From NCBI RefSeq assembly GCF_009881055.1, contig NZ_WXFG01000005.1, positions 1 through 64,000 on the forward strand: a stretch of 64,000 bases of DNA. Reading direction: 5' to 3'. This stretch comes from Peptoclostridium sp. Its GTDB lineage: Bacteria > Bacillota > Clostridia > Peptostreptococcales > Peptostreptococcaceae. Made by a program: the position numbers and the translations under genes. Each line of letters begins with the position of its first letter. Position 1 is the stretch's first letter. Of this stretch, positions 13,239-24,420 are shown piece after piece. The notes below the pieces were generated by a model that did not search any database, was not told where the DNA came from, and saw only the letters and a list, made by a program, of their open reading frames with translations.

Positions 13239-13664
13239 TCACCTTATTACGAACACGGGCATAGACGCATGGTGGACTACCTTGCTGGCCACAGAACCGA
13301 TCAGGAATCTCTTTGCTCCACTCATTCCATGTGTGCATATTATTATCATGTCACATTCTTCCCTTTCGGCCATGTCGATTATCTCTGCAGCCGGGTCGCC
13401 TGTTGCTATGTGGAATGTAACCTTTATGTCACTGCCTTCGAATTTGGATTTTGCTCCTTCTATTATTGTTTCAGCTCTCGCCTTGAGATATTCATCCATC
13501 GTCTGAAAATTTTGCGTTATAAAAGTCTGGGTAAATCCCGGTTCTATGTCTGCCACATTCAGCACTATTATTTCTGCACCGAACTTTTCCGCAAAGCTTA
13601 TAGCAATATCATACGCCTTTAGGCAAAAATCCGAGCCGTCGACCGGCAATAGTATCTTCTTCAT
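13239..13664 (-). CDS. universal stress protein A family protein
   Basis: A 141-residue UspA-fold protein. It opens KKILLPVDGSDFCLKAYDIAI and contains the ATP-binding G-2x-G-9x-G(S) motif in THGMSGAKRFLIGSVASKVVHHASMPV, so it is likely the nucleotide-binding kind. The start is the ATG preceded by GGAGGGG at 6 bases. It is monocistronic. UspA-type proteins respond to starvation and stress; no specific partner is indicated here. Confidence 0.92.
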   Translation of the reverse strand: MKKILLPVDGSDFCLKAYDIAISFAEKFGAEIIVLNVADIEPGFTQTFITQNFQTMDEYLKARAETIIEGAKSKFEGSDIKVTFHIATGDPAAEIIDMAEREECDMIIICTHGMSGAKRFLIGSVASKVVHHASMPVFVIR

Positions 13665-15355: not shown

Positions 15356-15562
15356 CTATATATGTTTATATTCCAAAGCTCTCTCGAGATTGGATATATT
15401 GTCCTCTGAAAAAAGATCTCTGCCTGTGGCTTTTATGTAAAAGCTGTTTATAGTCCTTATGTCATTGAACATAAAAGCGCTCGGCTTTGTAAGCCTGAGT
15501 CCTGTCAGCAGACTCGCTATTTCCTTTATTTCGTCCTCTGTTATTCTCACCGTGTTCTCCAA
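15356..15562 (-). CDS. small protein of unknown function
   Basis: About 68 residues from a TTG preceded by AGGGGGG at 6 bases. A frame from an ATG at 15604 would add 14 residues but has no ribosome site. The protein looks helical (ITEDEIKEIASLLTGLRL, then a second helix after FMFNDIRTI) and ends with ERALEYKHI. No signal peptide, membrane segment or motif is seen and I do not recognise the family. It lies convergent to the transpeptidase gene. Confidence 0.5.
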   Translation of the reverse strand: MENTVRITEDEIKEIASLLTGLRLTKPSAFMFNDIRTINSFYIKATGRDLFSEDNISNLERALEYKHI

Positions 15563-16947
<1,385 letters not shown>

Positions 16948-16959
16948 GGATAAAAAATG

Positions 16960-16986
16960 AAGGGATGCCCGAGGGCATCCCTTTTT
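16960..16986 (+). terminator. terminator of gap
   Basis: Perfect stem AAGGGATGCCC / GGGCATCCCTT with a GA loop and a following T-run. Confidence 0.88.
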
Positions 16987-17032
16987 GTTTTGAAAAAAGA
17001 CGAAATAAAATTCTTCTGGCTCGCGTGAAAAG

Positions 17033-17345
17033 CTAATCCAAGGAATAATTGGCCTTTAAATTTCGTTTTGTGATTTCCATTTGGCTTATGCTCGAATACA
17101 AGAAACAGTCGGTCTTAGACTCCGCTTTTGGATTTCCGTGCAGCTCATGCTCACTGCAGCTCTTGAATTTTGAGAACTCGCTGCGCTCAGACACTCAAAA
17201 TTCTGCTGCCGCAGCATCGCATTTTGCCGGGAAATCTGCAAAAGCAGACTCCAATAAGACCTTGCCTGTTTTTCTTGTATTCAATCGCCGCGATAATCCA
17301 GATAAGCGCAGCGTAAATCCGATGAAACAAAGCCAGGTCTTTTTT
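17033..17345. repeat. modular palindromic repeat, copy B
   Basis: The left flank repeats the shared GGCCTTTAAATTTCGTTTTG segment of copies A and D. A palindrome spans about 17092-17285 with arms containing GAATACAAGAAACA and TTTCTTGTATTC, and the core is inverted relative to copies A, C and D (17165-17203). The right flank (about 17320-17345, with AAAGCCAGGTCTTTTT) matches part of copy C. It fills the space between gap and the end of saoB. Confidence 0.82.
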
Positions 17346-17346
17346 A

Positions 17347-18141
17347 TTAGTCAAGCTGCAGGAACTTAACCCGCAATTCTCCGAGTGTGTGTCTGTCTGC
17401 GGGCGAAAACTCCATGTCCTTGTATTTTTCCAGCTGCTTTGCCAGGACGTTTGTGTCTGAGAGTTCTTTGGCGCAATGGTTGTAGAGTTTTATGAATTCG
17501 CGGAAGCCTTCGCTTTTTTTGAATTCCTTGTTTACTACAAGCACGCAGGTTATGTGGTCGGCTTTGATGGCCGCGCTTTCTTTTTGTCCCGCGAGAAAAA
17601 ATCCGCTTGTGAAGTCGGCAAGTACCGAGTCTACCTGTCCGTTTTCAAGCGCATACGGCAGGGCCGTACCCATCAATTTTTTCATTTGCGCGTTCTTGCC
17701 AAGGTTCTCAAGCACTATGTTGTCCAGATGCGGTCTGTTCTGTGGCACTCCCGTTATGCCTGGATTTTCCCTGTCTTTGAATACGAACATGCTTGTGTTT
17801 TGCATTACATCGCCTATTATTTCAAATTCCCTGTTAGTTTTTACAAACTCCCTGGCAGCGTCGGGACACAGAAATGCCATGTCCATCACATCCGAGCTCA
17901 ATGCCCATTGAGCCGATGCGCTTCAGCAGTCGCCTATTATATATGCTTCCAGCTCGCGGCCTTCTACCTTGCCCGCGGCTTCTGTGCTGCTCGAGATGTA
18001 GTCTAGAAGCAGCCCAGAGCTTTCAGTGGATGCTCCTACTCTGACATTGCTGCTGAGACTCTCCTTTGGCATGAACGTGAAGACTGCAATTGCTAAGGCT
18101 ACCATTAACACGGCTTTTTTTAGGAATCCCATGTTAATCAC
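17347..18141 (-). CDS. saoB: probable selenoprotein SaoB, ABC-type substrate-binding protein with in-frame UGA
   Basis: The two open stretches 18141-17926 and 17922-17347 are in the same frame and separated by a single TGA (17925-17923). Read as selenocysteine, this gives 264 residues with a Cys-Sec pair (I-G-D-C-U-S, U73). An N-terminal signal (KKAVLMVALAIAVFTF) is followed by a periplasmic-binding-like sequence on both sides of the UGA (VRVGASTESSGLLLDYI before; ALSSDVMDMAFLCPDAAREFV and GITGVPQNRP after), so this is one protein, not two. A hairpin follows the UGA immediately. It matches my memory of the NCBI family called ABC transporter substrate-binding (seleno)protein SaoB. The GTG start overlaps saoC by 8 bases. 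No ATPase or permease of its own is adjacent. Confidence 0.78.
17887..17925 (-). promoter_or_regulatory. candidate bacterial SECIS hairpin in saoB
   Basis: Starting at the UGA (17925-17923), the mRNA can form a perfect 6-bp stem GCTCAA / TTGAGC (17913-17908 with 17901-17896) around the loop TGGGCA, extended by an outer CATC / GATG pairing. The apical loop starts 15 bases after the UGA, within the range bacterial SelB needs. Confidence 0.6.
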
Positions 18142-18610
18142 AGCAGTCTTCCATGCCTTCTCCGAACAGGTTTATTATCTGGTTGTCTACAATTCTGTAT
18201 ATTGCATAGCCTACGCTTCCGTTTTTGGAGCCTGACACTATGAACTCAAGCTCGTCCTTTTCGTCTATGTCCTTGAATTGAATTTTCTGGTTCTCCGCTG
18301 GCGCTGGTATGGGTTCTGTCAACTGGTGCTTTTCATTTTCTTTTGCGATGACTGCACACATTTGCTTTTTGCCCTTTTCGTTATCGAATATAACTATCAA
18401 ATCCTTGCCGCCATCGTTTGTTATATCGTCGTATGCGCATTTTACGGGCTCTCTGTCAGGATGCTGGGTCTTGAAATATGCAAGCAGCTGGTTGTCTGCT
18501 GAGACTCCAAGGTCTGCTGTTTTGTTTTCACTCGCTGGTTTGCTGCTGCAACCACTTAATCCTGCTATGACCATCATAATTGCCATGATGCATGAAATTT
18601 TTCTTATCAT
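18134..18610 (-). CDS. saoC: SaoC-like lipoprotein ending in a Cys-Cys pair
   Basis: A 158-residue lipoprotein: signal peptide with lipobox LSGC, a polar linker, and a folded domain (about 38-150) with strands such as DLIVIFDNEKG and ELEFIVSG typical of small periplasmic domains of FG-GAP or calcium-loop appearance (DITNDGGKDLIV). The C-terminus is EDCCD, a vicinal cysteine pair one residue from the end. This agrees with the family I recall as Cys-Cys-COOH (seleno)protein SaoC, with one extra aspartate here. Vicinal cysteines at an extracytoplasmic tail suit capture of a soft metal or organometal. The ATG follows GGAGGGAG. Position between saoE and saoB supports the name. Confidence 0.75.
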   Translation of the reverse strand: MIRKISCIMAIMMVIAGLSGCSSKPASENKTADLGVSADNQLLAYFKTQHPDREPVKCAYDDITNDGGKDLIVIFDNEKGKKQMCAVIAKENEKHQLTEPIPAPAENQKIQFKDIDEKDELEFIVSGSKNGSVGYAIYRIVDNQIINLFGEGMEDCCD

Positions 18611-18625
18611 TTTTCTGCTCCCTCC

Positions 18626-19723
18626 TTACGCCGCTTTTTTCGATATTGACGCCATGGCAGTCTTTATTCCTGGCATAACTGCGCGAATAAAAAAAACAAA
18701 TATTATGAATGAGCACATATACTCTACAGGCTTTGGAAAATCTATGAGCAGCGTGTTTGCCGCCTTTATCGAATTGGATGTCCTGTCAAAGTTCATCGCA
18801 GGCTCAAAGCCCGGCATGAGCAGCAGATTGGCAACATACCCGAATGCAAGCGCCGTAAGCGTTATTACTGTGCTGTATATGATTGCCGTCCTTTTTCCCA
18901 TGAGGTTAAGCATGCTTATGAGCTCGGGGAAATTCGTGGCGGCTCCCGCCATCAGAAATGTTATGCCCACTCCTGGCGCTGCGCCGCTTGCAATAAGCGC
19001 GGCTATAAATGGTATGTGGCCAACTGCACACACATACATTATTGTAGCAAGAACAGCTATGCTTCCAAGCGACAACATGTTGGGATTGCCAAGGAAGCTT
19101 TGTATGTAATCCTGAGGAACTGCCGTAAGCAGAAAGCCGGCGAACAGCATTCCCGGTATCACATACTTGCTTACCGCAAGCGCAAGGTCGTTTATTGCCC
19201 AGTTGAGTCCCGATTTTATTCTTTCGGCAAGAACCGGCCTTGTGCCCTCCTCCAGCTCAAGCATCCTGGCCTGTATATTCTCCTCCACTCCTGGAGCCAC
19301 AAGCTCAGGACCTGCGAACATATTGCCTATAATGCCTATCAGCATAGGCACTGTAAAGCCCGCTATTACGTATATTATGGTTATCTCCGGACCCAGGAGG
19401 CCATAGCAGAGTATAACTGCTATCGGGTTGATTATAGGCGTTGCTGTCATAAAAGCAAGCACAGGTCCAAGATACGCACCTGAGTAGTATAGGCTTATCC
19501 CAAGAGGTATTACGCCGCAGCTGCATATAGGAAGGAGCATTCCTGATATCGTGCTCTTTAGAAGCGAAGACAGCTTCTTGTTTCCCAGCATCCTCTGGAA
19601 CTTGTCGGGCGACATTATGTCATGAAGCACCCCTGCCAGTATGAAGCTGAAAACAAGCCAGGCCGATGCGCTGTTTAATATGTTAAAGCCTGCAAGTACC
19701 ATTCTTTCAATAAATCCTAACAT
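18626..19723 (-). CDS. saoE: SaoE-like efflux permease (DUF318/ArsP-type)
   Basis: A 365-residue membrane protein with about eight to ten hydrophobic segments in two similar halves, separated by a cytoplasmic loop (about 150-180, PGVEENIQARMLELEEG). The family hallmark LLPICSCGVIPLGISL places it in the DUF318 permease superfamily; its best-known member ArsP exports trivalent organoarsenicals. The CSC pair in a membrane segment would suit a thiophilic cargo. The start follows AAAGGAT and is 6 bases after the saoT stop, so translation is coupled. Co-occurrence with two UGA-containing redox proteins points to the sao set; the true cargo is not known from sequence. Confidence 0.85.
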   Translation of the reverse strand: MLGFIERMVLAGFNILNSASAWLVFSFILAGVLHDIMSPDKFQRMLGNKKLSSLLKSTISGMLLPICSCGVIPLGISLYYSGAYLGPVLAFMTATPIINPIAVILCYGLLGPEITIIYVIAGFTVPMLIGIIGNMFAGPELVAPGVEENIQARMLELEEGTRPVLAERIKSGLNWAINDLALAVSKYVIPGMLFAGFLLTAVPQDYIQSFLGNPNMLSLGSIAVLATIMYVCAVGHIPFIAALIASGAAPGVGITFLMAGAATNFPELISMLNLMGKRTAIIYSTVITLTALAFGYVANLLLMPGFEPAMNFDRTSNSIKAANTLLIDFPKPVEYMCSFIIFVFFIRAVMPGIKTAMASISKKAA

Positions 19724-19729
19724 GTTTAT

Positions 19730-19984
19730 CTATCCTTTCACGGCCTCTTCAATGGCCTCAGTTATGCTTTTTTCAGACAGGTTCTGAATTTTCTTCTTTT
19801 CACCTATTACTATCATGCTCTTTGTGACCATACCGTATTTTTTTATGTATCCAAAATCCTTCCCAGCCCTGTAAATGACCAGCTCCAGCTTGTCTTCATG
19901 CTGCTTTGCCAAGCTTTCTACGAAAGCTCCATATTTGTCACATCAAGCGCAGGTGTTTATGAACTCAATCAGTATTTTTCCCAT
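19730..19984 (-). CDS. saoT: probable thioredoxin-like selenoprotein SaoT with in-frame UGA
   Basis: Reading from an ATG (19984) with an excellent GGAAGGAG site, the frame meets TGA at codon 14 (19945-19943) and continues openly for another 70 codons to TAG. Decoded as selenocysteine this is an 84-residue thioredoxin-fold protein with the active site T-C-A-U-C-D, followed by AFVESLAKQHEDKLELVIYRAGKDFGYIKKYG, a helix-strand pattern of small redoxins, and MVTKSMIVIG, which holds the conserved turn before the third strand. A conventional annotation would start at the TTG at 19912 and lose the active site. A hairpin follows the UGA. First gene of the sao operon with a promoter 34 bases upstream. 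Confidence 0.8.
19906..19945 (-). promoter_or_regulatory. candidate bacterial SECIS hairpin in saoT
   Basis: After the UGA (19945-19943) and a 14-base spacer, AGCTTTC (19928-19922) pairs perfectly with GAAAGCT (19918-19912) around the loop GTA. The loop contains GU, as in known bacterial SECIS elements, and lies about 21 bases from the UGA. Confidence 0.62.
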
Positions 19985-20025
19985 AACGTACTCCTTCCTT
20001 ATTTTTATCTTTCGTCTTAGCCCTA

Positions 20026-20053
20026 ATTATATATACTAGTGCCTCGACTTCAA
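20026..20053 (-). promoter_or_regulatory. promoter of the sao cluster
   Basis: On the minus strand TTGAAG (20053-20048), a 16-base spacer and TATAAT (20031-20026). The predicted transcript starts about 34 bases before saoT. Confidence 0.55.
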
Positions 20054-20197
20054 AATATATAATACAGGTTTTCTCTCATGTTTCGGACTATTATTCGAAT
20101 ATTTTATTGTACAGTGTTTTATTATTAATAACTCTAATGATTTTGCGCACCTTTTTATTCAAGTAAAAGCAGAGTTCATCAATTCATATTCATATCG

Positions 20198-20491
20198 CTG
20201 AATCCAAACGGAATAAATCAGCCTTAATTTAATGAGCTTTACTTTACAGGGCGCAAAACCGATGAAAAAAAGCCAGGTCTTTTTGAGGCTCGTTTTGATG
20301 AGGTTGCAGGCGATGCATGTGTACAAAGTCGCAGAATTTTGAGTGTTTGAGCGCAGCGAGTTCTCAAAATTCCAGAGCTTTGAAATATGCTAGCCTTTGC
20401 AACCTCCAAAACGAGACATAAGACCGGCTTTTTCATCGATAATAGCCACCTCTGGCTGGTGTGTTTTAAAGGCCAATTATTTCACCGGATT
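20198..20491. repeat. modular palindromic repeat, copy C
   Basis: It starts with GAATCCAAACGGAATAA as in copies A and D. A long imperfect palindrome runs from about 20256 to 20443, with arms around AAAGCCAGGTCTTTTT / AAGACCGGCTTTTTC and GGTTGCAGGC / GCCTTTGCAACC, centred on the core 20334-20372. It ends with TTTAAAGGCCAATTATT, the inverse of the shared flank in copies A and B. It separates pstB from the sao promoter. Confidence 0.82.
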
Positions 20492-20503
20492 GCGCTAACA
20501 CAT

Positions 20504-21253
20504 CTACCCAAAAATCCCTTCGATATACTGCCTTGTCCTCTCGTCCTTCGGATTTGAAAACACCTCCGAGGTCCTTCCAAATTCAACAAGCTCGCCTGAC
20601 ATCATGAACATCGTGTAGTCGGCTATCCTTCTTGCCTGCGCAAGGTTGTGGGTTACTATTACTATTGCGTAGTCTCTTGAAAGCTCTTTTAGCATGGCTT
20701 CTATCTTGGCCGTGTTCTGGATGTCAAGGGCCGAGCAGGGCTCGTCGAGCAGGAGCACTGAAGGCTCAACAGTGAGCGCTCTTGCTATGCAAAGCCTCTG
20801 CTGCTGTCCTCCTGACAGCTTCCTTGCCGGCATGTCCAGGCAGTGCGACACCTCGTCGTATAGGCCAGCAACCTGGAGCTTTTCCCTTGCAATCTGGCCA
20901 AGACGCTCCTTGTCCCTTATGCCGTGGTACCTTGGAGCATAAGTCATGTTATCCTTTATGCTTAGGGGAAACGGCGCCGGATTTTGAAAAACCATGCCCA
21001 GCTTGCTTCTTAGCTTTTCTCTCGGAATGTTCCTTGCATCCTTGCCCTCAAGCAGTATGCTGCCCTTTACGGAGCCGTCCTTCTCGTCCTCGACAAGAAG
21101 GTTGAGACTCTTTATGAACGTGGTCTTGCCGCAGCCAGAAGGGCCTATTAATGCTGTGATTGAGTTTTTGTATATGTCGACGTTTATGTCACTTAGAACG
21201 ATTTTGCTCGCATAAGTTGCGCACATTCCTTTTATTTGCATTATTCTATCCAT
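20504..21253 (-). CDS. pstB: phosphate ABC transporter ATP-binding protein
   Basis: A 249-residue ATPase of the phosphate-specific PstB type. Walker A GPSGCGKTTFIKSLN, signature LSGGQQQRLCIARAL, Walker B LLLDEPCSALD and the H-loop VTHNLAQARRIADYTMFM are all intact; the CSALD form and the LAQARRIAD segment are PstB-typical. It overlaps or abuts the pstA stop. Last gene of pstSCAB; the usual phoU regulator does not follow, a repeat does. Confidence 0.93.
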   Translation of the reverse strand: MDRIMQIKGMCATYASKIVLSDINVDIYKNSITALIGPSGCGKTTFIKSLNLLVEDEKDGSVKGSILLEGKDARNIPREKLRSKLGMVFQNPAPFPLSIKDNMTYAPRYHGIRDKERLGQIAREKLQVAGLYDEVSHCLDMPARKLSGGQQQRLCIARALTVEPSVLLLDEPCSALDIQNTAKIEAMLKELSRDYAIVIVTHNLAQARRIADYTMFMMSGELVEFGRTSEVFSNPKDERTRQYIEGIFG

Positions 21254-21254
21254 G

Positions 21255-22088
21255 TCATTCTCCTCTGTTCACTTTTCCAAAGAGCATCGCCGCTCCGTTT
21301 ATCGCAAGTATCAAAAGCATGAGCACAGTAGCCGTTCCATATACGTATTCTGTAGGAGCTCCTTCTCCAATGAGCACATAAAGATGGTAAGAAAGCGCCA
21401 TGGCCGGAGACATAATGCTTTCCGGAGCCTTTGCGTATATTACCGCACCTGTAAATATTATTGGCGCTGTGGCTCCCATTGCAAAGCCTCCTGCAAGCGC
21501 CACAGCGCTGATAATGTCTGGAAGCGCCTTGCGCAGCACAAGCCTTTTTATGGTATAGTACCTTGAAACGCCAAGCGCATACGATGACAGCAGCATATCC
21601 TGCTCAATCTCGCCCAGCCTTTTTTCAACCCTAACCTCAATAAAGGGAAAAATCATTATGCCAAGTACAAGTCCTCCAGAGAGAACCGACACGCCAAAAC
21701 CCATCTTGAGAACAAAGAGTGTGTAGCCGAAAAGTCCAAGAACTATTGAAGGCATCCCGGCAGTAGATTCTATGACCAGCCTTACTATGCTGTAGAGCCT
21801 TCTGCTGCCGCAGTAAAACTTGAGGTATACTGCCGTTGAAATTGCAAGTAGAGATGCTACTGCACAGGCAACTCCTGTAAATGCCAAGCTGCCTATTATG
21901 GCGGGGTATATGCCTCCGCTTGAGCCCAGAGGAAAGCCCTTTGGCGAATCCAGTAGAAACTCTGTACTTACCATCCCGCCCCCTTTTAGGAGTATATAGC
22001 CTAATATGAAAAATGCTACAGCAAATGTGAGCGCCGCGCTGAGCACGCTCCATATCAGAAATCTATTGTATTTGCTTTTTTTGTCCAT
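21255..22088 (-). CDS. pstA: phosphate ABC transporter permease PstA
   Basis: A 277-residue inner-membrane permease with six predicted membrane segments (first about 11-33) and the EAA-like loop in LGVSRYYTIKRLVLRKALPDIISAVAL. The sequence AGMPSIVLGLFGYTLFV matches PstA. It pairs with PstC to form the phosphate channel. ATG with GGGAG at 7 bases; closely spaced with pstC and pstB. Confidence 0.92.
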   Translation of the reverse strand: MDKKSKYNRFLIWSVLSAALTFAVAFFILGYILLKGGGMVSTEFLLDSPKGFPLGSSGGIYPAIIGSLAFTGVACAVASLLAISTAVYLKFYCGSRRLYSIVRLVIESTAGMPSIVLGLFGYTLFVLKMGFGVSVLSGGLVLGIMIFPFIEVRVEKRLGEIEQDMLLSSYALGVSRYYTIKRLVLRKALPDIISAVALAGGFAMGATAPIIFTGAVIYAKAPESIMSPAMALSYHLYVLIGEGAPTEYVYGTATVLMLLILAINGAAMLFGKVNRGE

Positions 22089-22106
22089 TTGGATTCTCCC
22101 ATAACG

Positions 22107-22964
22107 TTATAAGTCTGCACCTTTTTTTATGTGCGACACCAGCATACTGACTGCGAACCTCATAATTATCAGTATGAAACCCGCCGCAAAGAGCGCATGA
22201 TAGTGCAGGCTGCCGACAGGCGCACCACCCATCTCGAGCGCTATTAGAGCCGGTATTGTCTCGCATTTTCCAAGCAGCCTTGGAAATATCGGGCTGTTGC
22301 CTATGACCATCATTACAGCCATCGTCTCGCCCATGCCCCTTGCAAGCGCAAGCACCGCGCCTGCAAGCACGCTTCTGCTCGCTGCCGGCAGCACAAGATA
22401 CCTTACCATGTGCCATTTAGAAACTCCAAGGCTGTCAGACGAGGTCTTGTACGACTTCATTATGCCAACCATTGTTGTGTCGCATGTTGATATAATGTAC
22501 GGCAAAATCATTATCGCAAGCACCATTCCGCCCGCAAGCGCACTCTCTCCGGACGACATTGAAAAGTGTCTCTCAAAATATCCAACGACCACCATGAGCC
22601 CCATGAAGCCAAATACAACAGAAGGCAATCCCGCCATGAGATCAATGAACGGCTTTAGCAGCCTCCTTGCCGCTTCCCCCGCAACGCACGACAGGAATAC
22701 TGCCGTACCGACACCTATCGGAAGCGCTATTACAACCGCGAGAAATGAAACGTATACAGTGGCAAACACCATAGGCAGTATCGAAAGCACGGGATCCGTC
22801 CCCATGGGGTGCCACCTTTCATTTGTAAAAAATCCAGCCACTCCCGAATGCCTGAAGGCCGGGAGGCTCTCAGCCCCTATAAAGAATATTATGAAGCCAA
22901 GTATAGCAACCGAAACAAGCGTGAACGCCTTTATTATAAACTCAAAAACCTTATCCCTTTTCAT
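22107..22964 (-). CDS. pstC: phosphate ABC transporter permease PstC
   Basis: About 285 residues from the ATG following AAAGGGGAG; an upstream extension of 39 residues has no ribosome site and covers the intercistronic hairpin. Six membrane segments, the segment FFTNERWHPMGTDP with the PstC-typical W-P pattern after the first helix, and the loop LGVSKWHMVRYLVLPAASRSVLAGAVLALARGMGETMAV are diagnostic for PstC. First permease of the operon, separated from pstS by a hairpin. Confidence 0.92.
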   Translation of the reverse strand: MKRDKVFEFIIKAFTLVSVAILGFIIFFIGAESLPAFRHSGVAGFFTNERWHPMGTDPVLSILPMVFATVYVSFLAVVIALPIGVGTAVFLSCVAGEAARRLLKPFIDLMAGLPSVVFGFMGLMVVVGYFERHFSMSSGESALAGGMVLAIMILPYIISTCDTTMVGIMKSYKTSSDSLGVSKWHMVRYLVLPAASRSVLAGAVLALARGMGETMAVMMVIGNSPIFPRLLGKCETIPALIALEMGGAPVGSLHYHALFAAGFILIIMRFAVSMLVSHIKKGADL

Positions 22965-22993
22965 ATACTCCCCTTTCATGTAGAGTCGACAAG

Positions 22994-23023
22994 AAAATCC
23001 AGAAGATAAACCTTCTGGATTTT
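22994..23023 (-). terminator. intercistronic hairpin between pstS and pstC
   Basis: Perfect 12-bp stem AAAATCCAGAAG / CTTCTGGATTTT with a 6-base loop, followed on the minus strand by a weak T-run. It is a partial terminator or RNA-stability element, the usual device that makes pstS transcript exceed the permease genes. Confidence 0.7.
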
Positions 23024-23049
23024 GTTCTGGACTCACGTATTTTATTTTA

Positions 23050-23952
23050 CTACTTTGCAGGGACAAAACCCATCTTTTCAACGGTTTTCATGCCTTCCTC
23101 AGAAAGCATAAGGTCTACGAAAATCCGCTCCTGAGGCAGAAGTTCCCCGCTTTTTATTACTATAAGGGGTCTTGATATCTTGTATGCTCCGCTTATTATG
23201 TTTTCCTTTACAGGTGCCACGCCATCAACTTCAAGAGGCGTTATCTTTCCTGCATTTTGATTCACAAGACCGTAAGATGCATAGCCTATCGCATCCTTGT
23301 TCTCCATTATCTTAGTAACGAGTGCTCCCATTGAAGGCTCCTGTATAGCCTCGGCTTTAACCTGAGCATCTCCCATGACCTTGTCCTGGAAAACCTGGTG
23401 AGCACCGCCGCCTATGTCTCTTGTAACTACAACTATCTCGTTGTGAGGAAGTCCTGGTGCAACCTCATCCCAGTACTTATACTCACCTGAGAATATCTTC
23501 ATAACCTCTTCTGTAGTGAGGTTCTTTTTTACATCAAGTATAGGGTTTTCAGGGTTTACCGATATTGTAAGTACGTCAAGACCGAGTCTGAATTCCTTGT
23601 AGTCCTTTATCTGCTCTTTCTCCTCGTCCTTTACTTCCCTTGAAACCATTCCAAAATCGCTTGTACCGTCTATTACAGACTTAACGCCGGCACTCGAGCC
23701 TCCCGCTGATACGAAGAGGTCTATGCTCTTTTCAGGAAAATCAGCACTAACCTTGTTCCAGGTCTCGTTAGCGTCAATAAAATCGGTAGCTATCTGGGAT
23801 ACAACAGGTGCAAGCGTAGACGAGCCCTTGAAGAATATTTGCGACTTGAACTCATCCTTTGACGCTTCCTCCGCCGGCTGCTGAGAACATCCTGTAAGCG
23901 CCAGTGAAAGAATCATCATTGAAGCTACTATAAGACTCCAAAATCTCTTCAT
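23050..23952 (-). CDS. pstS: phosphate-binding lipoprotein PstS
   Basis: A 300-residue lipoprotein with signal peptide and lipobox LTGC, followed by the PstS pocket motifs IFFKGSSTLAPVV, SAGGSSAGVKSVIDGTSDFGMVSRE and VVVTRDIGGGAHQVF. The conserved SS and RD/GG phosphate contacts are visible. The ATG at 23952 follows AAAGGGG at the right distance; an upstream in-frame start lacks a site. It captures phosphate outside the membrane for PstCAB. Confidence 0.93.
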   Translation of the reverse strand: MKRFWSLIVASMMILSLALTGCSQQPAEEASKDEFKSQIFFKGSSTLAPVVSQIATDFIDANETWNKVSADFPEKSIDLFVSAGGSSAGVKSVIDGTSDFGMVSREVKDEEKEQIKDYKEFRLGLDVLTISVNPENPILDVKKNLTTEEVMKIFSGEYKYWDEVAPGLPHNEIVVVTRDIGGGAHQVFQDKVMGDAQVKAEAIQEPSMGALVTKIMENKDAIGYASYGLVNQNAGKITPLEVDGVAPVKENIISGAYKISRPLIVIKSGELLPQERIFVDLMLSEEGMKTVEKMGFVPAK

Positions 23953-23994
23953 CCAAATTCCCCTTTCATCTCTTAACATATTTTTTACATACTT

Positions 23995-24138: not shown

Positions 24139-24420
24139 GCTTGATGCAGCGCAAATCCGCTGAAAAAGCCGGTCTTATATCGAATTTACACTGTCTAGCG
24201 CCGAAATTTGTTTGATTATATCTGAGCAAGAATCCAAATGGAATCAAGCAGGCCTGATTTAATGAGTTTTGAATGATTTCCTGGCAAAATGCATGAATGA
24301 AATCGTCGTGATTTTGAGTGTCTGAGCGAAGCGAGTTCTCGAAATCACAGATTTCAGAATGGATAAGCCAATTGGAAATCACAAAATGAAATTTAAAGGC
24401 CAATTATTCCTTTGGATTCA
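24139..24420. repeat. modular palindromic repeat, copy D
   Basis: The left part (GCGCAAATCCGCTGAAAAAG) resembles copy C. The main palindrome runs from GAATCCAAATGGAAT (24230-24244) to ATTCCTTTGGATTC (24406-24419) and is centred on the core 24311-24347, here GATTTTGAG / CTCGAAATC. The inner right flank, GGCCAATTATT after AAATTTAAA, is shared with copies A and B. It lies between the apgM-type gene and pstS. Confidence 0.82.

What the first reader, a model, noticed from the sequence alone, without database searches (positions are those of the whole stretch)
17347..19984. Selenoprotein cluster (sao-type): two in-frame UGA codons with SECIS-like hairpins, an ArsP-like permease and a Cys-Cys lipoprotein
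Seen: saoT carries TGA at codon 14 in T-C-A-U-C-D and saoB carries TGA after a cysteine (D-C-U-S); in both, the frame is open and homologous-looking on each side, and a perfect hairpin begins 9-14 bases after the UGA. They share an operon with a DUF318/ArsP-type permease and a lipoprotein ending in Cys-Cys-Asp. Known: this set corresponds to the families I recall named SaoT, SaoE, SaoC and SaoB, proposed as selenocysteine-assisted organometal transport. Inference: capture by extracytoplasmic vicinal Cys/Cys-Sec, reduction by the CxUC redoxin and export by SaoE. The lyase and ABC subunits of the full system are absent from this window, so this may be a reduced version with a lone substrate-binding protein.
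Basis: partly seen in the sequence, partly recalled or inferred. Interest (0 to 1): 0.93.

Follow-up and report, generated by a model that had tools for sequence, protein, structure and literature searches.

The report
Split selenoprotein gene set for organometals

Summary
Four minus-strand genes (window 17347-19984) are saoT, saoE, saoC and saoB; each passes its NCBIfam cut-off. The UGA codons of saoT (codon 14) and saoB (codon 73) behave as coding: the frame is conserved on both sides in a sister species, the saoB position is UGA or Cys in 62 of 62 SaoB hits elsewhere, and selA, selB, selC and selD are in the genome. The 'reduced version' inference is wrong: saoX, saoP (UGA), saoA, saoD, saoL (UGA) and a double-cubane reductase gene lie together on contig C21 of the same genome, all above cut-off. 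The sister species has the same split, about 320 kb apart on one contig. Peptoclostridium litorale keeps saoT to saoL in one run between the same flanking genes, so the run most likely broke between saoB and saoX. In 53 of 54 named-genome loci with room, saoX and saoP stay near saoE. Selenium incorporation, substrate and chemistry remain untested. A new member of a known kind with an unusual two-locus layout. In passing: one relative's SaoE has UGA at an invariant Cys.

The parts
19730..19984 (-). saoT, thioredoxin-like (seleno)protein SaoT, 84 aa, active-site motif C-A-U-C
   Evidence: NF040730 116.6 bits, cut-off 65; alignment with 12 relatives
19943..19945 (-). in-frame UGA, codon 14 of saoT, predicted Sec
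   Evidence: 17 synonymous and 0 nonsynonymous codon changes after it versus the sister species
19912..19928 (-). hairpin 14 nt after the saoT UGA, candidate SECIS
   Evidence: not significant on its own (22 of 200 shuffles fold as well)
18626..19723 (-). saoE, ArsP_1-type permease (efflux transporter SaoE), 365 aa; invariant Cys67, Cys69, Cys232 in 12 sequences
   Evidence: NF040736 550.1 bits, cut-off 325; PF03773 181.4 bits, cut-off 32.3
18134..18610 (-). saoC, lipoprotein-like Cys-Cys-COOH protein, 158 aa, FG-GAP/beta-propeller-like model
   Evidence: NF040734 193.1 bits, cut-off 80; model pLDDT 91.1; terminal CC in 61 of 65 SaoC hits elsewhere, CC within the last few residues in 3, followed by a longer tail in 1
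17347..18141 (-). saoB, substrate-binding (seleno)protein with an N-terminal helix that likely anchors it, 264 aa
   Evidence: NF040727 234.1 bits, cut-off 140; model pLDDT 92.3, substrate-binding-protein fold
17923..17925 (-). in-frame UGA, codon 73 of saoB (D-C-U-S), predicted Sec
   Evidence: UGA in 25 and Cys in 37 of 62 SaoB hits elsewhere
17896..17913 (-). hairpin 9 nt after the saoB UGA, candidate SECIS
   Evidence: not significant on its own (43 of 200 shuffles fold as well)

Best explanation
The window holds saoT, saoE, saoC and saoB, one of two separate loci that together carry a full SAO (selenocysteine-assisted organometal) gene set in this genome; its two UGA codons are predicted to be read as selenocysteine, and its products likely catch an organometal compound outside the cell and export the metal. 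Inferred mechanism. (1) SaoB, whose invariant Asp71, Cys72, Sec/Cys73, Cys92, Asn115 and Asp176 likely line the cleft of a binding protein, and SaoC with its terminal Cys-Cys, likely bind the soft metal or metalloid centre outside the membrane. (2) SaoX (four invariant Cys), SaoP (predicted Sec) and SaoA, on contig C21, likely import it as an SsuABC/TauABC-type ABC importer. (3) SaoL, a MerB relative with Cys-Sec, likely breaks the carbon-metal bond. (4) SaoT (C-x-U-C redoxin) likely keeps thiols and selenols reduced or hands over the ion. (5) SaoE, an ArsP-type permease, likely exports the product. Shown: gene content, family membership, UGA conservation, the two-locus split. Predicted by model: the SaoB and SaoC folds. 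Not shown: selenium incorporation, substrate, direction of transport, lyase activity.
For: All ten genes exceed NCBIfam cut-offs: T, E, C, B; X 530.5/300, P 425.4/295, A 447.3/360, D 191.7/169, L 224.1/140 and double-cubane reductase 546.3/350. Among 61 genomes the same 13 have SaoE, SaoB and SaoP above cut-off, and 12 of those 13 have SaoL. The split is not an assembly artefact of this draft: sister genome G001 has saoB at C1:2153250 and saoP at C1:1832859 of one 2.25-Mb contig. Trees for SaoE, SaoP and SaoA each join both genomes to P. litorale (support 92/74, 98/96, 100/99), so both halves look inherited together. SaoL matches MerB2 (5c17) at E=1.6e-15, with its Cys-Sec pair on MerB's C-terminal Cys motif. 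The genome has no MerA over cut-off, so export rather than reduction of a metal product fits.
Against: No experiment. Among the 17 neighbour clusters found in 4 or more of 74 loci I recognised no mer or ars gene (four representatives scanned with models, the rest read by eye), so the context does not name the substrate. An importer plus a lyase plus an exporter is an odd route for pure detoxification. Downstream hairpins are not significant singly, and the saoP and saoL contrasts are not significant. SaoT position 14 is neither UGA nor Cys in 29 of 71 relatives. Nothing shows that the two loci are co-regulated.
Confidence: 0.6

Rival explanations
1. The system mainly handles organoselenium, for example methyl-selenium compounds: it would scavenge or recycle selenium for the cell's selenoproteins and not remove a toxic metal.
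For: PMC10418091 (passages seen): a figure legend lists Sao genes and dicubane cluster proteins among putative selenium genes of type I mlp clusters, which the text argues act on methyl-selenium. A double-cubane reductase gene follows saoL on C21, and proteins of that cluster are near SAO in 33 of 74 loci (one representative scanned).
Against: SaoL is related to the alkylmercury lyase MerB and SaoE to ArsP-type permeases. All-Cys SaoB forms are common (37 of 62), so dependence on selenium is not strict.
Confidence: 0.12
2. The substrate is specifically an organoarsenical, with SaoE acting like ArsP on trivalent methyl- or aromatic arsenicals and SaoL as a carbon-arsenic lyase.
For: SaoE is in the ArsP_1 family.
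Against: SaoE also scores 180.8 bits against the SO_0444 Cu/Zn efflux model (cut-off 300), so the family does not fix the metal. SaoL's only solved relatives at E below 0.01 are MerB proteins.
Confidence: 0.15
3. The UGAs are stops and saoT and saoB are broken or re-started genes.
For: The hairpins are not significant singly. Plain ORFs of 72, 184 and 60 aa exist in the fragments.
Against: Mostly synonymous change on both sides; UGA or Cys in 62 of 62 SaoB hits; 12 of 12 relatives align across the saoB site; selA, selB, selC and selD in the genome, selD itself with UGA.
Confidence: 0.02
4. The saoXPADL locus was gained from elsewhere and the window locus is an older remnant that lost its own copies, so there was no simple operon split.
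For: The C21 locus also has saoD and a double-cubane gene, which the P. litorale run lacks. The SaoE grouping is weakly supported by one measure (74).
Against: SaoP, SaoA and SaoE all join P. litorale. SaoX of C21 is 65.6% identical to X2, which directly precedes saoP in P. litorale, versus 54.1% to X1.
Confidence: 0.15

Closest known systems
SAO system (Haft & Gwadz 2023, J Bacteriol 205:e00259-22; paper not held, known here from its reference entries and from passages of the review PMC13188914)
   Same: All nine Sao families that have NCBIfam models found here (T, E, C, B, X, P, A, D, L) present above curated cut-offs, with UGA in saoT, saoB, saoP and saoL.
   Different: Two loci and not one run; SaoB and SaoX fall in different loci; SaoC is Cys-Cys, where the review lists a Cys-Sec form.
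MerB alkylmercury lyase (MerB2, PDB 5c17; 1s6l)
   Same: SaoL aligns with MerB2 over residues 78-228 at E=1.6e-15, and with other MerB chains over a Cys-Ala-x-Asp motif and the C-terminal Cys motif.
   Different: Sec after Cys in the C-terminal motif; 53.9 bits against the MerB model, cut-off 193; no merA over cut-off in the genome.
SsuABC/TauABC/NrtABC-type ABC importers
   Same: SaoX, SaoP and SaoA score against them. SaoB's model resembles TauA, SsuA, MetQ and PqqT.
   Different: Below the cut-offs of those models that are listed; invariant Cys or Sec in binding proteins and permease.

Membership tests
SAO system | SaoT, SaoE, SaoC, SaoB above NCBIfam cut-offs | tested here: met
   116.6/65, 550.1/325, 193.1/80, 234.1/140
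SAO system | ABC subunits SaoX, SaoP, SaoA in the genome | tested here: met
   530.5/300, 425.4/295, 447.3/360 on contig C21, not in the window
SAO system | MerB-like lyase SaoL and DsrE-like SaoD | tested here: met
   224.1/140 and 191.7/169 on C21; SaoL
SAO system | Sec or Cys at the UGA positions of relatives | tested here: met
   SaoB 62 of 62 (25 UGA, 37 Cys); SaoP 69 of 72 by the motif used, SaoL 37 of 39 by the motif used. SaoT position 14 only 42 of 71, because Sec moves within the motif or is absent.
SAO system | genes form one run (usual layout; not a defining feature of the families) | tested here: not met
   Two loci. 53 of 54 named-genome loci with 8 kb of room have saoX and saoP near saoE.
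Bacterial selenoprotein | selA, selB, selC, selD in the genome | tested here: met
   selA 618.5/267.9 and selD 366.6/125, the part after its UGA; selB 388.6/242.25; selC 73.8/47 and ARAGORN
Bacterial selenoprotein | SECIS hairpin downstream of UGA | tested here: inconclusive
   Hairpins present but not significant singly; group contrast significant for saoT and saoB, not for saoP and saoL
Bacterial selenoprotein | selenium in the protein | not testable with these tools
   needs 75Se or mass spectrometry
SAO system | acts on organometals | not testable with these tools
   no assay

The most novel reading that the evidence does not exclude
SAO is two separable machines: SaoTECB is a stand-alone capture-and-expel arm in which SaoB and SaoC feed the ArsP-type pump SaoE from outside, and SaoXPADL plus the double-cubane reductase is an uptake-and-cleave arm. 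The window's genus has pulled them apart. The pump itself uses a metal-binding chalcogen, since one relative has Sec in place of SaoE's invariant Cys232.
Probability: 0.2. Interest if true: 0.6.

Novelty: new member of a known kind. Interest (0 to 1): 0.42.

Why it matters
SAO is predicted from sequence, and the review passages read here say that the precise roles of these proteins still need study. A genome in which the system is naturally cut in two invites separate deletion of each arm, which makes the question of what SaoB and SaoE do without the ABC importer directly testable. The Cys/Sec census and the confident SaoB and SaoC models name the residues to test.

Tried and rejected
A reduced SAO system: rejected, the missing genes are on C21. 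Repeats as the cause of the split: the repeats beside saoTECB belong to a family with 39 matches in the genome, but the equally split sister species has only about 50 bp between gapA and saoB and about 220 bp between saoT and pstB, and the repeat has no BLAST match in its two sao stretches, in the P. litorale stretch or in the C21 stretch; so it came later or is incidental. The neighbouring pst operon as the missing ABC part: its PstB- and PstS-like proteins score just under the phosphate cut-offs (320.5/343.2, 197.5/206.6), are not Sao proteins, and the same operon also flanks the intact run in P. litorale, so it is conserved neighbourhood. SaoB and SaoX as homologues: the profile comparison gave probability 2%, so shared ancestry is not shown although both look like binding proteins. 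Fold search with SaoC: no PDB match with E at or below 0.001, best an integrin propeller at E=0.015. SaoB by sequence: no Pfam family for the window protein, scattered weak hits in relatives, no solved structure at E below 0.05. Two papers by Haft and co-workers are not held, so whether they describe split layouts is unknown to me. A literature search on Peptoclostridium selenoproteins gave nothing used.

Rows left out: the SaoB alignment used 54 of 55 non-redundant candidates plus the window, the SaoC alignment 52 of 59 plus the window, the SaoX alignment 29 of 51 plus the C21 protein; the trees used 22 of 74 named-genome loci plus two genomes. Counts are of hits over score thresholds that I chose; 12 of 74 loci gave no SaoB hit over mine, some of them with a divergent or cut-off SaoB.
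Full report
Observation. Reading 15500-22000 and listing ORFs with UGA as a residue gives, on the minus strand, saoT (19730-19984, UGA codon 14), saoE (18626-19723), saoC (18134-18610) and saoB (17347-18141, UGA codon 73). A ribosome-site-like AAGGAGT precedes saoT, and saoB as listed starts over the end of saoC. All four exceed the curated NCBIfam cut-offs for SaoT, SaoE, SaoC and SaoB. In Pfam only SaoE passes a cut-off (ArsP_1).

UGA as selenocysteine. The genome (G000, 2.04 Mb, 33 contigs, 99.74% complete) has selB (388.6 bits, cut-off 242.25), selC (73.8/47), selA (618.5/267.9) and selD (366.6/125, scored on the part after its UGA) side by side on contig C10. selD has an in-frame UGA 18 codons into the reading from ATG 13357 of L028. 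Against the sister species G001, codon changes on both sides of each UGA are mostly synonymous (saoT 4/1 and 17/0, saoB 18/5 and 46/25). In 13 sequences (window plus 12 relatives), SaoB has Cys-UGA in 11 and Cys-Cys in 2, and SaoT has C-A-U-C in 5, U-P-x-C in 6 and C-P-T-C in 2. In the wider set of 74 loci from named genomes found with SaoE, SaoB is CU in 25 and CC in 37 of 62, SaoP has U in 56 and C in 13 of 72 (3 not matched by the motif), and SaoL has CU in 35 and CC in 2 of 39 (2 not matched). For SaoT the count of 71 is 14 CxUC, 28 CxCC, 19 UxxC, 1 CxxU and 9 plain CxxC (my tally of the list). The hairpins after the UGAs are real but not exceptional one by one (22 of 200 and 43 of 200 shuffles). 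As groups, UGA-bearing saoT and saoB genes fold better downstream than their UGA-free homologues, while saoP and saoL show no significant difference; related sequences are not independent, so these p-values are too good.

The rest of the system. A SaoL search over 61 genomes found the lyase in this genome on contig C21. The stretch around it (L064) holds saoX, saoP (UGA codon 222), saoA, saoD, saoL (UGA codon 197) and a double-cubane-cluster reductase gene, in that order, all above NCBIfam cut-offs. C21 ends 191 bases after the last gene, so what follows is unknown there. Sister genome G001 has the same two groups (L039 and L065), about 320 kb apart on a 2.25-Mb contig. The same 13 of 61 genomes have SaoE, SaoB and SaoP above cut-off, and 12 of the 13 have SaoL. 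G039 keeps E, X, B and P together but has saoL 62 kb away, so partial splits occur elsewhere.

How the split arose. The window has gapA (458.1 bits, cut-off 367.2), saoB-C-E-T, pst, an apgM-like gene (312.6, just under its cut-off of 320) and a gene without an NCBIfam name that resembles the P. litorale one by eye (the P. litorale genes other than sao and pstB were named by eye). SaoX of C21 is 65.6% identical to X2 and 54.1% to X1. Trees of SaoE, SaoP and SaoA (24 rows each) all put G000 and G001 with P. litorale (92/74, 98/96, 100/99). The simplest inference is that one run broke between saoB and saoX2, with X1 lost; saoD and the double-cubane gene are extra to the P. litorale run, so a more complex history is possible. 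Of 54 named-genome loci with at least 8 kb downstream of saoE, 53 have saoX and saoP near saoE (within 6 kb before to 8 kb after); the exception, L127, lacks a SaoP hit. That set leaves out the window's genome and possibly its nearest kin (note).

Structure and sites. AlphaFold2 models from 55 SaoB and 53 SaoC rows are confident (pLDDT 92.3 and 91.1). SaoB has a two-lobed substrate-binding-protein fold (PDB 3un6, TauA 6ssy, PqqT 9b1u, MetQ, SsuA) with an N-terminal helix that likely anchors it. Its invariant residues are Asp71, Cys72, Cys/Sec73, Cys92, Asn115 and Asp176 in 55 rows; most sit at or just after strand ends, where such proteins bind ligand, so a cleft site is inferred (coordinates were not inspected). 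SaoC resembles a piece of an FG-GAP beta-propeller (FG-GAP_3 in 17 of 53 members at E up to 0.01; fold match weak) with a C-terminal Cys-Cys in 61 of 65, near the end in 3 and with a longer tail in 1. SaoX has invariant Cys56, Cys201, Cys230 and Cys231 in 30 rows. SaoE has invariant Cys67, Cys69 and Cys232 in 12 rows. SaoL aligns with MerB2 and other MerB structures over the Cys motifs; that those Cys are catalytic in MerB is recalled.

Context of substrate. MerA: no match over cut-off; HgcA: no match; four activase matches over cut-off elsewhere in the genome could serve the double-cubane protein. Recurrent neighbours in the 74 loci are double-cubane-type proteins (33 loci), activases (15) and molybdopterin oxidoreductases (13); I recognised no mer or ars gene among the 17 clusters found in 4 or more loci (four representatives scanned with models, the rest read by eye). 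PMC10418091 places Sao genes among putative selenium genes of mlp clusters (passages and a legend), which keeps an organoselenium rival open. PMC13188914 (passages) lists SaoB, SaoC, SaoL, SaoP, SaoT and SaoX as selenoproteins and says their precise roles need study; SaoE is not named in it (0 occurrences).

Rarity. In 391 genomes drawn from the class, 4, this one included, have SaoE at E up to 1e-90.

Verdict. The finding is a genuine member of the SAO system with two predicted selenoprotein genes. The interpretation as a reduced version is replaced by a complete gene set in two loci. Function stays a prediction.

Noticed in passing
L110:6995-8104 (CANAZK010000077.1, uncultured Lachnospiraceae MAG): SaoE itself has an in-frame UGA at the Cys that is invariant in the 12 aligned sequences (M-Y-V-U-A-V-G-H; Cys232 of the window protein). 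saoT, saoB, saoP and saoL of the same locus also have UGA. The motif with UGA was in 1 of 141 loci and in no viral contig. One MAG only; a base-call error is not excluded.
   Followed up: partly
L122, L123, L125, L126 (Flavonifractor and similar genomes): Two neighbouring saoP-like genes, each with UGA at the same motif, as if the permease were a heterodimer of two selenoproteins.
   Followed up: no
L080, L082, L086, L087, L088 upstream of saoT: A molybdopterin oxidoreductase gene ends within about 25 bases of the saoT match, or overlaps it; 13 of 74 loci have such a gene nearby.
   Followed up: partly
window 17000-17345, 20251-20379, 24311-24418: A dispersed repeat family with 39 matches in the genome lies in the gaps on both sides of saoTECB; no match in the corresponding stretch of the sister species.
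   Followed up: partly
window 20504-23979: A pst-type ABC operon whose PstB- and PstS-like proteins score just under the phosphate cut-offs (320.5/343.2, 197.5/206.6); the same neighbour flanks sao in P. litorale and G001.
   Followed up: partly
L028:12314-13357(-), UGA at 13304-13306 (G000 contig C10): selD reads through an in-frame UGA near its start (S-G-U-A-A-K), so SelD is probably a selenoprotein too.
   Followed up: partly
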